A stretch of DNA of 32,275 bases from Myxococcales bacterium (GTDB taxonomy: Bacteria > Myxococcota > Myxococcia > Myxococcales > JAJYLH01), in the NCBI GenBank assembly GCA_021787845.1, contig JAJYLH010000059.1, forward strand, positions 1-32,275, read 5' to 3'. The position numbers and the translations under genes are program-made. How positions within the stretch are numbered: position 1 is the stretch's first letter; each line of letters begins with the position of its first letter. The notes beneath the pieces are model-generated. The model had not been told where the DNA came from. It was given only the letters and a program-made list of their open reading frames with translations, and searched no databases. Of this stretch, positions 3 to 4,555 are shown one piece after another.

Positions 3-290
3 GCGAAGCGGGCGGAGGACGAGCGCCGGGCGGCAGCACTCAAGGCGGCCGAGGAAGCGCGCCGGGCGGAAGAGGCGAAGCGGGCGGAGGACGAGCGCCG
101 GGCGGCAGCACTCAAGGCGGCCGAGGAAGCGCGCCGGGCGGAAGAGGCGAAGCGGGCGGAGGACGAGCGCCAGGCGACAGCGCTCAAGGTAGCCGAGGAA
201 GCGCGCCGGGCGGACGAGGCGAAGCGGGCGGAGGACGAGCGCCGGGCGGCAGCGCTCAAGGTAGCCGAAGAGGTGACACCTCTTACCGAT
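3..290. repeat. 72-bp tandem repeat, four copies, coding
   Basis: Four head-to-tail copies begin at 3, 75, 147 and 219; the fourth breaks down near 273. Each unit encodes 24 residues (starting AKRAEDERRAAALKAAEE and ending in ARRAEE). Units 1 and 2 are identical over the stretch I compared. Units 3 and 4 carry a few substitutions (ERQAT, LKVAEE, RRADE). The array is cut by the left window edge, so the total copy number is unknown. The period keeps the frame open and should form a charged alpha-helix. Near-identity of units suggests recent expansion. Confidence 0.95.
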
Positions 291-1457
291 GAGGCCTTGC
301 TTGCGGAGCTGAGCAAGCTGTCGGCGGGTCTCGCGGAGGAGGAGCCCACCGACGCCGGCCAGAAGCGTGATGAGGCTTCGACCGTGGTGTTGTCGGAATC
401 GCCGAAGGAGAACGCCGAGGAGCCGATCACCCTCGAGGTTCTCGCCGACGAGGTCGCGAAAGAGATTCCCGTCGAATCCGTGGGGCACACCGAGAAGAGC
501 GCTCCCGACGCGAAAGCGGAAGCGAATCTCTCGGAGGCCGTGACGCTGATCGGCTTGGAGGGCGAAGGGCTGCAGGTCGGCGGCGCCGCCGCTGCTGACC
601 CGTTCGCGAGCGTTCCTGACGCGCCGCACTTCCAGGCCGCGGCGCCCGGTGAGACGACCAACGCCGTCATCATCGCCTCCGGCGCCAAGAATCGGCACTG
701 GGGGCGGCTGGTGATCGGTCTTGCCGCCTTGGTGATCGCGATCGGCAGCGTGATGTTCATCGCCTTCAAGCAGGGCTTGATCTCTTTCAAGTCCGCCGCG
801 CACAAGGCCGCGAAATCGGGCGTCGACCTCTCCGCCGCCGGTACGCTGGACCAGGGCGCGCTGGACATCCTGAGTGGCACCGCGAAGGAACGCGCGGCCG
901 AGGAAGCCAAACGCAAGGCGCAAGCGCTGGCACGCAAGGACCGGCAGCGGCGGGACCTTCAGGGGATGATTCTTCCGCCAGGGAGCACGGACGTCGATCC
1001 GAGCGGCGCCATCGTCAGAGCGCCGACGCCGAACAAACCGGCACCGGAGCTGACCCCCGACCAACTCGCGGAGATGCTCGGCATGCAAAGCGGTCCCAAG
1101 GTCGTCCCCAGGAACTTCACCTCGCCTGGGATGGACCTGAACAAGAGCGACTCGAGCTCCGGCGGCCCGGACCCGAAGACCCTCGAAACCAAGGTCGCCG
1201 AGAGCAAGTCGGCGCTCGACTTGTGCATCTCCACCGCGGTCAGCCGCGACCCGACCCTGAACCTGGGCAAGGTCACCGTCACCGCGACCATCGCGCCCTC
1301 GGGCATCGTCACGAGCGCTGTCTTCAGCCGCGCCGACGTGGGCGACATGGATGTCGGCCACTGCTTGCGCGGCGTGATCAAGCGCATCGTCTTCCCTGCC
1401 TTCAGCGGCGATTCCGTGGACGTCAAGATTCCCCTCATGATCGGCAACGGCGGCTAG
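3..1457 (+). CDS. Membrane-anchored repeat protein with AgmX/PglI-like C-terminal domain (5' partial)
   Basis: The frame is open from the window edge, so the start lies upstream; the GTG at 273 is internal. In the 484 visible residues the order is: Ala/Arg/Glu/Lys-rich helical repeats (about 1-95), an acidic low-complexity segment, one transmembrane helix (about 233-255, GRLVIGLAALVIAIGSV), a charged Ala/Lys/Arg helix, and a C-terminal domain (about 400-484) with two spaced cysteines and a FPAFSGD-type ending. That last domain resembles the AgmX/PglI (GltJ-like) C-terminal domain of myxobacteria, which has a TonB-like shape and sits in the periplasm. The stop is only 10 bp before the first BMC vertex gene, so it is probably co-transcribed. 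A link to microcompartments (for example membrane tethering) is inference. Family call moderately sure; role unknown. Confidence 0.7.
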   Translation, partial: AKRAEDERRAAALKAAEEARRAEEAKRAEDERRAAALKAAEEARRAEEAKRAEDERQATALKVAEEARRADEAKRAEDERRAAALKVAEEVTPLTDEALLAELSKLSAGLAEEEPTDAGQKRDEASTVVLSESPKENAEEPITLEVLADEVAKEIPVESVGHTEKSAPDAKAEANLSEAVTLIGLEGEGLQVGGAAAADPFASVPDAPHFQAAAPGETTNAVIIASGAKNRHWGRLVIGLAALVIAIGSVMFIAFKQGLISFKSAAHKAAKSGVDLSAAGTLDQGALDILSGTAKERAAEEAKRKAQALARKDRQRRDLQGMILPPGSTDVDPSGAIVRAPTPNKPAPELTPDQLAEMLGMQSGPKVVPRNFTSPGMDLNKSDSSSGGPDPKTLETKVAESKSALDLCISTAVSRDPTLNLGKVTVTATIAPSGIVTSAVFSRADVGDMDVGHCLRGVIKRIVFPAFSGDSVDVKIPLMIGNGG

Positions 1458-1467
1458 GAGCGTCTCG

Positions 1468-1752
1468 ATGTACCTGGGCGAGGTCCGCGGCACCGTCGTC
1501 GCGACGCGAAAGATCGAAGGCATCGAGGGCAAGAAGCTGTTGCTCGTGCAGCCGGTGAACAAGAGCCGCGTGCCGGTGGGGCCGGTCGAGGTGGCCGTCG
1601 ACACGGTCCAGGCGGGCGTCGGCGATTTCGTCTACCTGGTGGGCTCCCGGGAGGCGTCACTGGCGCTGGACCGCTGGTTCGTTCCGGTCGATTCCGCCAT
1701 CGTCGGCATCGTCGACGACGTCGACGCGGGCGCTCCCGCGAAAGGCCATTAG
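1468..1752 (+). CDS. EutN/CcmL family microcompartment vertex protein (BMC-P), copy 1
   Basis: The protein has 94 residues, the usual BMC-P length. The N-terminus (MYLGEVRGTVVATRK), the LLLVQPV strand, and the VAVDTVQAGVGDFV segment are the family signature. Such proteins form pentamers that cap the vertices of icosahedral bacterial microcompartment shells in the cytosol. The C-terminal IVGIVDDVD strand is also typical. ATG at 1468 follows a GGAG-type site (AGGAGCG, 1457-1463). The next gene starts 2 bp after the stop codon and is a second, divergent BMC-P, so both are surely in one operon. The shell hexamers and trimers are not in the window and must lie upstream or elsewhere. Family assignment is secure; substrate of the organelle is inferred only from the adjacent aldolase. 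Confidence 0.93.
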   Translation: MYLGEVRGTVVATRKIEGIEGKKLLLVQPVNKSRVPVGPVEVAVDTVQAGVGDFVYLVGSREASLALDRWFVPVDSAIVGIVDDVDAGAPAKGH

Positions 1753-1754
1753 CG

Positions 1755-2030
1755 ATGGTTCTCGCGCGCGTGCTCGGCCCGGTGGTGGCGACCATCAAGC
1801 ATCCGGCGTTCGCCGGCCACACCCTGCTCTTGTGCCAGCCCATCGACGAGCGCGGCCGCGACGTCGGAACCGACTTCATCGCCGTCGACCACGCGCAGGC
1901 CGGGAAGGGCGACACCGTTCTCGCCCTGCGGGAGGGCAACAGCGCGAGGCAAGCGCTGCGGCAGAAGATGGCGCCCATCCGCTCGTTCATCGCCGCGGTG
2001 GTCGACCACGTCGACGTGGAGAAGCCGTGA
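1755..2030 (+). CDS. EutN/CcmL family microcompartment vertex protein (BMC-P), copy 2
   Basis: The protein has 91 residues and the same fold signature as its neighbour: MVLARVLGPVVATIKHP, a TLLLCQPID strand, FIAVDHAQAGKGDTVL, and a closing AAVVDHVDV strand. It differs from copy 1 at most positions, so the pair is an old duplication rather than a recent one. Several BMC loci encode more than one pentamer, which may occupy different vertices or form shells of different stability; this is family knowledge, not shown here. Its TGA stop overlaps the GTG start of the aldolase gene (GTGA at 2027-2030), which implies translational coupling and links shell and enzyme production. Confidence 0.93.
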   Translation: MVLARVLGPVVATIKHPAFAGHTLLLCQPIDERGRDVGTDFIAVDHAQAGKGDTVLALREGNSARQALRQKMAPIRSFIAAVVDHVDVEKP

Positions 2031-2899
2031 ACGGCCCGTTCGCCCGAAGCCTTCTCGCCCGCACCGCCCGCAAGCTCCACTCCGCCGGCTGGTGCGCGAA
2101 CCACGACGGCAACGCCTCGATCCGAATCGGAAAGGATCGGTTCCTCTGCACGCCCACCGCCGTCTCCAAGGCGGACGTCGACGAGTCGATGCTGATCGTC
2201 GTTGACGGTACCGGGCAGGTCGTCGAAGGGACCCGCAGGGCTTTCGGTGAGCTGGAGCTACACCTCGCCGTCTACCGCGCGCGCCCGGACGCCCAGGCCG
2301 TCCTGCACGCCCACCCGCCTTTCGCCACCGCCTTCGGCGTCGCTGGCGTCAGCCTCGAGGTCTCGGTCCTGCCGGAAGTGCTGGTCAGCCTCGGGCCTGG
2401 CGTCCCCACGGTACCGCTGTCGCTCCCCAAGAGCCCGGAGCTGGTCCGGGGGGTCGAGGAAGCGGCGAAGAAGAGCCATGCCTTCCTCGTCGCGGGAAAC
2501 GGCGCCCTTGCCCTCGGCGTCGACCTGGAGCAGGCGTACCTGCGCCTGGAGCTGGTCGAGCACTACGCGAAAGTCGTCCACCTCGCGCGGCAGCTCGGAA
2601 GCGTGAAGGAGCTGTCGGGCGAGCAGCAGAAGAAGATGCTGGAGGCGCGCGCGAAGGCTGGCCTCGAGCCGCCGGGCGTCCAGTCCTGGGCGAGCGGTCC
2701 GGTGCCCGTGAAGGCGCCTTCACCAATAGTGAAAACGCCTGCCGCCTTCGCCGCCCGGCCAGCAGGAGCGCCGCCGTCAACCGACTTCGACGCCATCGCC
2801 GAGCGCGTGGCGCGCCAGCTCGACGGACGGACACCGGCCGAGGGCGAGCTGAAGAAGCTCATCGCCGACGAGATTCACGCGGCTCTCGCGGGCGCTTAG
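2027..2899 (+). CDS. Class II aldolase (fuculose-phosphate type), BMC cargo with C-terminal tail
   Basis: The protein has 290 residues, starting at GTG 2027 that overlaps the upstream stop; a longer in-frame extension back to 1832 overlaps the vertex gene and is rejected. Residues 1 to about 200 are a class II aldolase/adducin domain: GNASIR near the N-terminus, the catalytic Glu in GELELH, and the zinc pair HAH in VLHAHPP. The third zinc His, normally in an NHG/HHG motif, aligns with GNG here (Asn). The family cleaves fuculose- or rhamnulose-1-phosphate to dihydroxyacetone phosphate and lactaldehyde, and lactaldehyde is the typical intermediate enclosed by such BMCs. A Pro/Ala-rich linker (about 225-250) leads to a C-terminal helix that resembles an encapsulation peptide. 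Substrate is inferred. Confidence 0.85.
   Translation: MNGPFARSLLARTARKLHSAGWCANHDGNASIRIGKDRFLCTPTAVSKADVDESMLIVVDGTGQVVEGTRRAFGELELHLAVYRARPDAQAVLHAHPPFATAFGVAGVSLEVSVLPEVLVSLGPGVPTVPLSLPKSPELVRGVEEAAKKSHAFLVAGNGALALGVDLEQAYLRLELVEHYAKVVHLARQLGSVKELSGEQQKKMLEARAKAGLEPPGVQSWASGPVPVKAPSPIVKTPAAFAARPAGAPPSTDFDAIAERVARQLDGRTPAEGELKKLIADEIHAALAGA
2780..2896 (+). other. Probable BMC encapsulation peptide at aldolase C-terminus
   Basis: The last 39 residues of the aldolase begin TDFDAIAERVARQLDG, an amphipathic helix with hydrophobic residues spaced i, i+3/4, then a second helical stretch ending EIHAALAGA. It is joined to the enzyme by a Pro/Ala-rich linker that aldolases outside microcompartments lack. 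Short amphipathic helices on poorly conserved linkers are the known targeting device for BMC cargo. This assignment rests on position and pattern only. Confidence 0.6.
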
Positions 2900-4555
2900 G
2901 TGACGCGCACGAGAACGCCCGCGCACGCGGGGGTCGACCGTTGGCTCACCGGCCTGTCGCCGATCGAGGCGGCGCGTGCCATCGCCCGGCCGTCGCGGGA
3001 GATCGATAGCGCTCTCGCCCAGCTCGATGTCGATCGCGCGCGGCTCGTGATCGACGTCTACGAATCGCGCGCGGCCACGCGGCCGAACCGGAAGGCCCAC
3101 GGCATCTATTACACGCCGCCGTGGGTCGTCGAAGCGATGCTCGACCGGGTACCGCTCGACGGGCTCCTGCTCGACCCGGCGGCCGGGGCGGGCGCTTTCG
3201 TCGTCGCGCTCTCGCGGCGCCTCGGCCTCGAAGAGCTCCAACGCATTCACGCCTGTGACCTCGACCAGGAGGCGCTCGACGTCTGCGCGCTCGCCCTGGA
3301 AGCCGCCTGGGGCGCGGGCGCGCTGGAGCTCATCGCCGGCTGGCGAACGAACAACGCGCACGCCGGCGACTACCTGCACGCGCGACCGACGGCCGCCCGC
3401 CCGAATCTCGTGATCGGCAATCCGCCGTATGGCGTCAGCGCTGCTGCTGAGCTCGGCGAGCTGCCCTCGGAGGGCGAGCGCGACCTCTCCCTCCGCTTCT
3501 TGCTCCGAGCGCTGACCGACATCGCTCCCGGTGGGCAGGTCGCGCTCCTGGTGCCCGACACCTGGCTGACCAACCACCGCGCCAAGACGCTGCGCCGAAC
3601 GCTCCTCGAACGCACGGGCTTGGCGCGCGTCGTCGACTTCGGCAAGCCCTTCCAGACCGCGAAGGACACCCGCGTCCACGCCGTCGTGCTCCAGCAGAGC
3701 GCTTCCGAGTGCCGGGTGGAGAGCCTGCGGGACGGCGTGGTCGTACCGATGGCGAGCGCGCGGAAGAACGAGCTGGCGAGCCACGTCAGGCGCGGCTGGT
3801 TCCTCTACCGCACCACCGAAGAAGCGCGAGCCTGCGCCGCGCTGGAGCGACACGCGTCGCCGCTGGGCGAGAAGTTCGGGGTCCTCTACGGGCTGCGCAC
3901 CGGAAACAACCCGCGTTTCGTGCAGAGCGGCACCGGAGCCGTCCCCCTCATCGGCGGGCTCGACTTCGACGCGTTCGATCGGCACGTCGCTCCCCGCCAC
4001 CTCGCTCAGCCCGAGACGTTCGCCCGCCTCGTCGCCGCGCAGCGCGGGCGCTGGAAGGTCGGCATCCAGCGCATCCGAACGAACAGCCGCCTCCCCTGGC
4101 GCCGCTGGCTGGAGGGAGCGCTGCTTTCGCCTGGCGAGGTCGGCCTCGACTCGCTGACGTTGATCGCGCACGACGCAAGCGGCGAGGCGCTCTCCGACGA
4201 GCTGTGCGCGCTGTTGGGCGTGGTGAATTCGTCGATTCTCAACCGCTGGTACCGCCTGGCGTTCACCGACGTCAACGTGAAGCCGGTCTACGTGCGCGAG
4301 CTGCCGGTGCCGGCGTTGAGCCCCGAGCTCGCGCGGCTGGTGCGGCGGCGGCTCGGACGGCCAGGAGACCGCGCTCTCGAACGGGCGATCGATCGGCTGG
4401 TGGCGGAAGCGTACCAGCTCGGCGAGAGCGGTATCGGGGTGTTCGAACGCGGCTTCTGGACCGAAGAGCTCGAGCGGCGACCGCTGCCGACGCTCGATGC
4501 CGCGCTGGCGCTCGCGCGCGAAGGCGACGATGCGCTCGGCGTCGCGAGCGGCTAG
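2900..4555 (+). CDS. N6-adenine DNA methylase (Eco57I/TaqI-like), apparently without nuclease partner
   Basis: The protein has 551 residues; its GTG start is the base after the aldolase TAG. The SAM-binding motif I is LLDPAAGAGAF (about residues 90-100), and the catalytic motif IV is NPPYG (about 174-178), the N6-adenine/N4-cytosine gamma-class signature. The C-terminal third, with phrases such as NSSILNRWY and VNVKPVYVRELPVP, resembles the TaqI-like target-recognition region of type II/IIG enzymes. I see no PD-(D/E)XK or HNH nuclease motif in the protein or its neighbours, so it looks like an orphan methylase or one whose partner lies elsewhere. Its zero-gap placement behind BMC genes suggests co-expression with them. 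Target sequence cannot be read from the gene. Confidence 0.85.
   Translation: MTRTRTPAHAGVDRWLTGLSPIEAARAIARPSREIDSALAQLDVDRARLVIDVYESRAATRPNRKAHGIYYTPPWVVEAMLDRVPLDGLLLDPAAGAGAFVVALSRRLGLEELQRIHACDLDQEALDVCALALEAAWGAGALELIAGWRTNNAHAGDYLHARPTAARPNLVIGNPPYGVSAAAELGELPSEGERDLSLRFLLRALTDIAPGGQVALLVPDTWLTNHRAKTLRRTLLERTGLARVVDFGKPFQTAKDTRVHAVVLQQSASECRVESLRDGVVVPMASARKNELASHVRRGWFLYRTTEEARACAALERHASPLGEKFGVLYGLRTGNNPRFVQSGTGAVPLIGGLDFDAFDRHVAPRHLAQPETFARLVAAQRGRWKVGIQRIRTNSRLPWRRWLEGALLSPGEVGLDSLTLIAHDASGEALSDELCALLGVVNSSILNRWYRLAFTDVNVKPVYVRELPVPALSPELARLVRRRLGRPGDRALERAIDRLVAEAYQLGESGIGVFERGFWTEELERRPLPTLDAALALAREGDDALGVASG

What the first reader, a model, noticed from the sequence alone, without database searches (positions are those of the whole stretch)
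1468..2899. Microcompartment locus with two unlike vertex proteins and a tagged aldolase in a myxobacterium-like genome
Two EutN/CcmL pentamer genes 2 bp apart, coupled by stop-start overlap to a class II aldolase that ends in a linker plus amphipathic helix, is a compact cargo-plus-vertex module. Fuculose/rhamnulose aldolase BMCs are best known from Planctomycetes and Verrucomicrobia, with a shell known from Haliangium among myxobacteria. The encapsulation peptide is inferred from pattern.
Basis: partly seen in the sequence, partly recalled or inferred. Interest (0 to 1): 0.6.

Follow-up and report, generated by a model that had tools for sequence, protein, structure and literature searches.

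The report
Myxobacterial organelle satellite: vertex proteins plus aldolase
This three-gene cluster is a detached piece of a known bacterial protein organelle (the Haliangium-type microcompartment): it encodes two of the shell's three corner proteins and a tagged sugar-cleaving enzyme, whose metal site differs from that of every non-organelle relative examined.

Summary
Two EutN/CcmL genes (1468-1752, 1755-2030) are followed, with a GTGA overlap, by a class II aldolase (2027-2899) with a C-terminal tail of about 75 residues. The missing shell is elsewhere in the genome: on contig C92 a sigma-54 regulator, BMC-T, BMC-H, EutN and an acylating aldehyde dehydrogenase; further away a second BMC-T, EutB-EutC-EutL, and a DeoC with an encapsulation-like N-terminus. 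This is a type I HO (Haliangium ochraceum-type) microcompartment with its "two BMC-P plus aldolase" satellite, published in 2021 (PMC8217296): a new member of a known kind.

The tail matches other HO aldolase tails (17.0 bits; 0 of 2000 shuffles as high) but is missing from nearly all same-order relatives.

Three findings go beyond that paper's main text. (1) Asn158 replaces the third metal-binding His of FucA; all 58 Asn sequences lie in the HO clade, none among 41 relatives without shell genes nearby that kept His. (2) In one-operon relatives the aldolase sits with tagged DeoC and, in 3 of 5, triosephosphate isomerase. (3) The genome has a second, untagged FucA-like aldolase with all ligands. 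I infer that aldolase, DeoC and EutBC feed one dehydrogenase. Substrate untested.

The parts
1468..1752 (+). First EutN/CcmL vertex (BMC-P) protein, 94 aa; the 'first of pair' group
   Evidence: PF03319 E=7.5e-26; own group against second-of-pair and main-locus EutN
1755..2030 (+). Second EutN/CcmL vertex (BMC-P) protein, 91 aa; the 'second of pair' group
   Evidence: PF03319 E=6.9e-23; own group
2027..2899 (+). Class II aldolase (FucA-like core, residues 1-213) with C-terminal tail, 290 aa; start overlaps the previous stop (GTGA)
   Evidence: PF00596 E=8.2e-38; fold match to E. coli FucA, TM 0.92 over the target, Foldseek E 2.5e-17
2249..2251 (+). Glu75 = FucA Glu73 (catalytic acid/base), kept
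   Evidence: alignment; invariant in all aligned sequences
2306..2314 (+). His94 and His96 = FucA His92 and His94 (metal ligands), kept
2498..2500 (+). Asn158 (AAC) in place of FucA His155, the third metal ligand
   Evidence: alignment; Asn in 58 sequences of the HO clade, His in 58 shell-linked and 41 unlinked relatives
2678..2785 (+). Disordered Pro/Ala-rich linker of the aldolase, residues 218-253
   Evidence: AlphaFold2 block pLDDT about 46-65 over most of it
2786..2821 (+). First tail helix, residues 254-265
   Evidence: AlphaFold2
2840..2887 (+). Second tail helix, residues 272-287 (within ELKKLIADEIHAALAG), the encapsulation-peptide candidate
   Evidence: AlphaFold2; 17.0 bits against a profile of HO aldolase tails, 0 of 2000 shuffles as high

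Best explanation
The three genes are the satellite locus of a type I HO (Haliangium ochraceum-type) bacterial microcompartment. Shown by sequence: the two EutN proteins are the second and third members of the HO BMC-P triplet, and the rest of the shell and core is on other contigs of the same genome. Inferred: the two proteins cap shell vertices, and the aldolase is cargo, held inside by its C-terminal helix. It cleaves a phosphorylated sugar to a triose phosphate (most likely dihydroxyacetone phosphate) and a short aldehyde. The aldehyde, together with acetaldehyde from the EP-tagged DeoC and from EutBC, is turned into acyl-CoA by the encapsulated aldehyde dehydrogenase. The organelle would thus be an aldehyde hub for scavenged DNA sugars and ethanolamine. 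In this enzyme Asn158 replaces the third metal ligand, which implies an altered metal site, but the kept Glu75, His94 and His96 argue that it is still an enzyme. The confidence given is for the identification as an HO satellite with cargo aldolase; for the aldehyde-hub mechanism with DHAP release I would say about 0.5.
For: Main-locus shell proteins match H. ochraceum structures best: BMC-H to HO-5815 (3.1e-46, first single-domain natural protein), BMC-T to HO-5816 (7.3e-75), EutN to the pentamer of 5v74 (1.1e-35). Own genome, 98% complete: acylating AldDH, EutB, EutC, EutL-like BMC protein, PduT-like BMC-T and EP-DeoC. Two EutN next to the aldolase recur across the order, and strong aldolase hits co-occur with the HO BMC-H in 195 genomes (63 both, 2 aldolase only, 8 BMC-H only, 122 neither; Fisher p about 2e-39, not corrected for kinship). 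Published description of exactly this satellite and of EUT modules in HO genomes (PMC8217296). Function: in one-operon relatives the Asn-type aldolase sits with EP-DeoC (5 of 5), a PduS-like protein (5 of 5) and triosephosphate isomerase (3 of 5); DeoC and aldolase matches are under 750 bp apart in 16 Myxococcota genomes. A class II relative, DrdA, releases DHAP plus acetaldehyde (PMC6079011).
Against: No enzyme activity, encapsulation or expression was tested. The genome has no PduL-type phosphotransacylase, so cofactor recycling is unexplained. Most Asn-type aldolases in this order lack the tail, so either they are not cargo or they enter another way. Triosephosphate isomerase linkage is seen only in 3 distant loci, not in this genome. 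A second FucA/DrdA-like aldolase stands beside an MtnA-like isomerase here, so 5-deoxyribose salvage may belong to that one, leaving this enzyme's substrate open.
Confidence: 0.85

Rival explanations
1. The aldolase is a degenerate, weakly active or inactive class II aldolase kept as a structural or scaffolding partner of the vertex proteins, not as a cargo enzyme.
For: The third metal ligand, His in all unlinked relatives outside the HO clade, is Asn; Ser71 of the FucA phosphate pocket is Phe or Pro in the Asn group. Adducin shows that the fold can persist in a structural protein (PDB hits 8iah/8iai). Most relatives lost the tail.
Against: Glu73, His92 and His94 equivalents are invariant in all 58 Asn sequences. 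In one-operon loci the gene sits among DeoC, AldDH and triosephosphate isomerase. In two genomes it lies 6 and 22 kb from the EutN pair and is kept.
Confidence: 0.2
2. It is a fucose/rhamnose (PVM-type) microcompartment, the aldolase cleaving fuculose- or rhamnulose-1-phosphate to DHAP and lactaldehyde.
For: The core is FucA-like, and pfam00596 aldolases are found in the PVM type.
Against: The shell proteins are HO-type. NCBIfam fuculose-aldolase models score far below their cut-offs. The three type II loci read contain DeoC, and no fucose or rhamnose kinase or isomerase.
Confidence: 0.08
3. The cluster is chance proximity: the aldolase belongs to general metabolism and only happens to follow the vertex genes.
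For: In G155 and G102 aldolase and EutN pair lie 6 and 22 kb apart; G029 has the pair but only a weak, paralog-level aldolase match.
Against: Tight linkage across dozens of genomes in several families, GTGA overlap here, and an EP-like tail.
Confidence: 0.03

Closest known systems
[quoted passage not shown] 2021, PMC8217296)
   Same: Two BMC-P plus aldolase away from the main locus; single BMC-H; BMC-P triplet; acylating AldDH; EUT module with EutL elsewhere; DeoC with EP-like N-terminus elsewhere
   Different: One BMC-T that sits after AldDH in relatives is on another contig here, beside an M17 aminopeptidase; the aldolase has a C-terminal EP-like tail that most same-order relatives lack
HO type II single locus (here in Bdellovibrionota L155, L161 and Gammaproteobacteria L158, L199)
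   Same: Same EutN pair, Asn-type aldolase with C-terminal tail, AldDH, BMC-T, EP-DeoC
   Different: All in one operon with a PduS-like protein and, in three loci, triosephosphate isomerase; not split
ACI-type BMC (Acidobacteria)
   Same: pfam00596 aldolase with C-terminal EP and a BMC-P triplet
   Different: Acidobacterial BMC aldolases (L175, L185, L192, L195) fall in another clade and keep His155; ACI loci come with a hydroxyacid dehydrogenase
E. coli FucA and B. thuringiensis DrdA (class II aldolases)
   Same: Fold, Glu73/His92/His94 equivalents
   Different: Third metal His replaced by Asn; Tyr113 position is Glu (as in most relatives); C-terminal tail

Membership tests
HO-type BMC (type I) | BMC-P triplet, two members with an aldolase in a satellite locus | tested here: met
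   Three EutN genes in the genome, two here beside the aldolase, one in the main locus
HO-type BMC (type I) | Main locus with HO-like BMC-H and acylating AldDH | tested here: met
   BMC-H to HO-5815 at 3.1e-46; AldDH in subfamily PRK15398, E=1.2e-193; same contig
HO-type BMC (type I) | HO-like double-ring BMC-T | tested here: met
   Best match HO-5816, 7.3e-75
HO-type BMC (type I) | AldDH groups with HO, SPU5 and SPU7 AldDH | not tested
   No labelled AldDH tree was built; only homologs in Myxococcota were found
HO-type BMC (type I) | Shell assembles in the cell and holds the aldolase | not testable with these tools
   Needs microscopy and purification
Class II aldolase (FucA family) | Fold and Pfam Aldolase_II domain | tested here: met
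Class II aldolase (FucA family) | His triad plus Glu metal site | tested here: not met
   Two His and Glu kept, third His is Asn158
Encapsulation peptide | Linker plus short terminal helix shared by cargo enzymes of the same BMC type | tested here: met
   targeting function not tested
PVM (fucose/rhamnose) BMC | PVM-type shell and fucose/rhamnose pathway genes in the locus | tested here: not met
   Shell proteins match HO best; no such genes beside the aldolase here or in the type II loci read

The most novel reading that the evidence does not exclude
The HO-type organelle aldolase is a new functional subtype of class II aldolase. Its third metal His was replaced by Asn, perhaps more than once, only within the HO microcompartment lineage, giving a changed metal or chemistry. 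It works beside tagged DeoC as one of several aldehyde sources for a single dehydrogenase.
Probability: 0.35. Interest if true: 0.6.

Novelty: new member of a known kind. Interest (0 to 1): 0.42.

Why it matters
The HO shell is the main structural model of microcompartments, yet its natural function is still called enigmatic (PMC8217296). This locus and its relatives give a concrete, testable list of encapsulated aldehyde sources (class II aldolase, DeoC, EutBC). They also point to a single residue, Asn158, that may mark a shift in metal or substrate of the organelle's aldolase. Finally, they show that the cargo tag is missing in most of one order while the gene link to the vertex proteins stays, a natural experiment on how cargo gets in.

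Tried and rejected
Hydrophobic moment of the last helix: not significant, so not used as evidence. A single origin of Asn: only marginally rejected (AU p=0.044, group named after seeing the tree), so 'more than once' is tentative; parsimony needs 4 changes. The idea that this enzyme is the 5-deoxyribose aldolase DrdA was weakened when a second, tail-less FucA-like aldolase with all ligands was found beside an MtnA homolog on contig C65. Glu at the Tyr113 position looked special but is shared by nearly all relatives, linked or not. PduL phosphotransacylase: none found. A mis-assembled tail is unlikely: coding statistics are even and the tail matches others in pattern.

Full report
Observation. 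EutN/CcmL no. 1 (1468-1752) and no. 2 (1755-2030) are 2 bp apart, and the aldolase (2027-2899) starts inside the stop of the second (GTGA). Pfam assigns PF03319 (7.5e-26, 6.9e-23) and PF00596 (8.2e-38). The window is the complete contig C36 of a 6.24 Mb, 98%-complete assembly, so the contig cannot be extended to the left; it ends in repeats of the upstream gene.

The rest of the organelle. A search of the same genome found the missing parts. Contig C92, about 190.8-195.7 kb: FHA-sigma-54 regulator, BMC-T, BMC-H, EutN, aldehyde dehydrogenase. Contig C92, about 25-29 kb: EutB, EutC and a BMC-domain protein at the EutL position. Contig C61, about 80-82 kb: an M17 aminopeptidase and a double-BMC BMC-T. 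Contig C56, about 93-94 kb: DeoC (TIGR00126, 3.1e-80) with an extra N-terminal stretch that begins with a helix-like ARELDELAEAIAERALRRLG. BMC-H, BMC-T and EutN of the main locus match the H. ochraceum structures HO-5815, HO-5816 and the 5v74 pentamer best among natural proteins. The BMC-T on C61 matches PduT-like proteins and the BMC-T entry 5dih; in relatives its homolog lies directly after the AldDH.

What it is. Sutter et al. [quoted passage not shown] Every shell feature tested here agrees. The two pair members and the main-locus EutN form three clean groups (179 sequences, SH-aLRT 95-98): this is the HO BMC-P triplet. The text of the paper does not state the Pfam of the satellite aldolase; that it is pfam00596 is my reading from the matching gene order.

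Distribution. Of 195 Myxococcota genomes searched, strong matches to the aldolase co-occur with the HO-like BMC-H in 63; 2 have only the aldolase, 8 only BMC-H and 122 neither (Fisher p about 2e-39, kinship ignored). In the tree a 58-row clade is almost entirely next to EutN genes; in the two exceptions (from G155 and G102) the pair lies 6 or 22 kb away on the same contig. The upstream AgmX-like gene has homologs near the satellite in 9 named relatives' loci, the downstream methyltransferase in 2.

The tail. Most relatives in the order end at 217-225 aa. The window protein, some other Myxococcota and the aldolases of BMC loci in many phyla end in linker plus helix. A profile of 24 HO-clade tails, window excluded, scores the window tail at 17.0 bits through its last helix; best of 2000 shuffles 10.2, best of 57 control C-termini 13.8. 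AlphaFold2 (mean pLDDT 89.9) shows two helices after a disordered linker. The last helix is not unusually amphipathic by itself. Encapsulation is therefore inferred, not shown.

The metal site. In the alignment to E. coli FucA the ligands His92 and His94 and the base Glu73 are kept, and His155 is Asn158. Asn occurs in 58 sequences; His in 58 with shell genes in the fetched stretch and 41 without. Parsimony needs 4 changes; holding the Asn rows together is marginally rejected (AU p=0.044). Even a relative that became an iron dioxygenase keeps the three His (PMC11841055). The sample of unlinked aldolases is mostly Myxococcota, so the claim is limited to what was examined.

Function. In the five Asn-type one-locus relatives (L155, L158, L160, L161, L199) the aldolase sits with a DeoC homolog and a PduS-like protein; the DeoC N-termini read in L155, L158 and L161 are EP-like. 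In three, triosephosphate isomerase is also present, directly downstream in L158 and L161. In Myxococcota, DeoC and aldolase matches are under 750 bp apart in 16 genomes and within 8 kb in 24. DeoC gives acetaldehyde and glyceraldehyde-3-phosphate, EutBC gives acetaldehyde (established knowledge). A DHAP-forming class II aldolase would explain the isomerase; DrdA is a precedent for DHAP plus acetaldehyde (PMC6079011). I therefore infer one aldehyde dehydrogenase fed by three tagged or shell-linked lyases. The nucleic-acid part was proposed by Sutter et al.; joining the class II aldolase to it through isomerase and DeoC linkage is mine. Against it: no PduL in the genome, and a second, canonical FucA-like aldolase beside an MtnA homolog, which may own the 5-deoxyribose route.

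Verdict. A real, well-conserved satellite of a known organelle: new member of a known kind. The Asn metal-site replacement and the patchy tag are the parts worth a specialist's attention.

Noticed in passing
L011:8097-10178 (own contig C61, about 80.1-82.2 kb): A PduT-like BMC-T starts about 20 bp after an M17 leucyl aminopeptidase gene; in relatives this BMC-T follows the AldDH in the main locus, so it seems to have moved in this genome.
   Followed up: partly
L010:11080-12732 (minus strand): FHA plus sigma-54 activator plus Fis-type HTH gene directly upstream of the main shell operon, a likely regulator of the organelle.
   Followed up: no
window 3-1457: Gene ending in a TonB/AgmX-like C-terminal region (my reading; no Pfam hit), with long EEAKRAEDERRAAALKA-type repeats where the contig breaks; homologs near the same satellite in 9 other loci.
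   Followed up: partly
window 2900-4555: N6-adenine methyltransferase (Eco57I/N6_Mtase type) starting right after the aldolase stop; homolog near the satellite in two relatives (L139, L142).
   Followed up: partly
own contig C65, about 375-2057 (L307, L309): Second class II aldolase (216 aa, all FucA ligands, no tail) next to an MtnA-like isomerase, a candidate 5-deoxyribose salvage pair (drdI-drdA).
   Followed up: partly
L098:495-1310 (G010 contig C12): A class II aldolase paralog outside the satellite clade with its own EP-like C-terminal helix; EutN or BMC genes not within the fetched 4.5 kb.
   Followed up: no
DeoC matches in 178 Myxococcota genomes: Matches to the EP-DeoC query include the N-terminal 80 residues mostly in BMC-bearing genomes and begin at about residue 83-88 in most BMC-less ones; judged by eye.
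   Followed up: no
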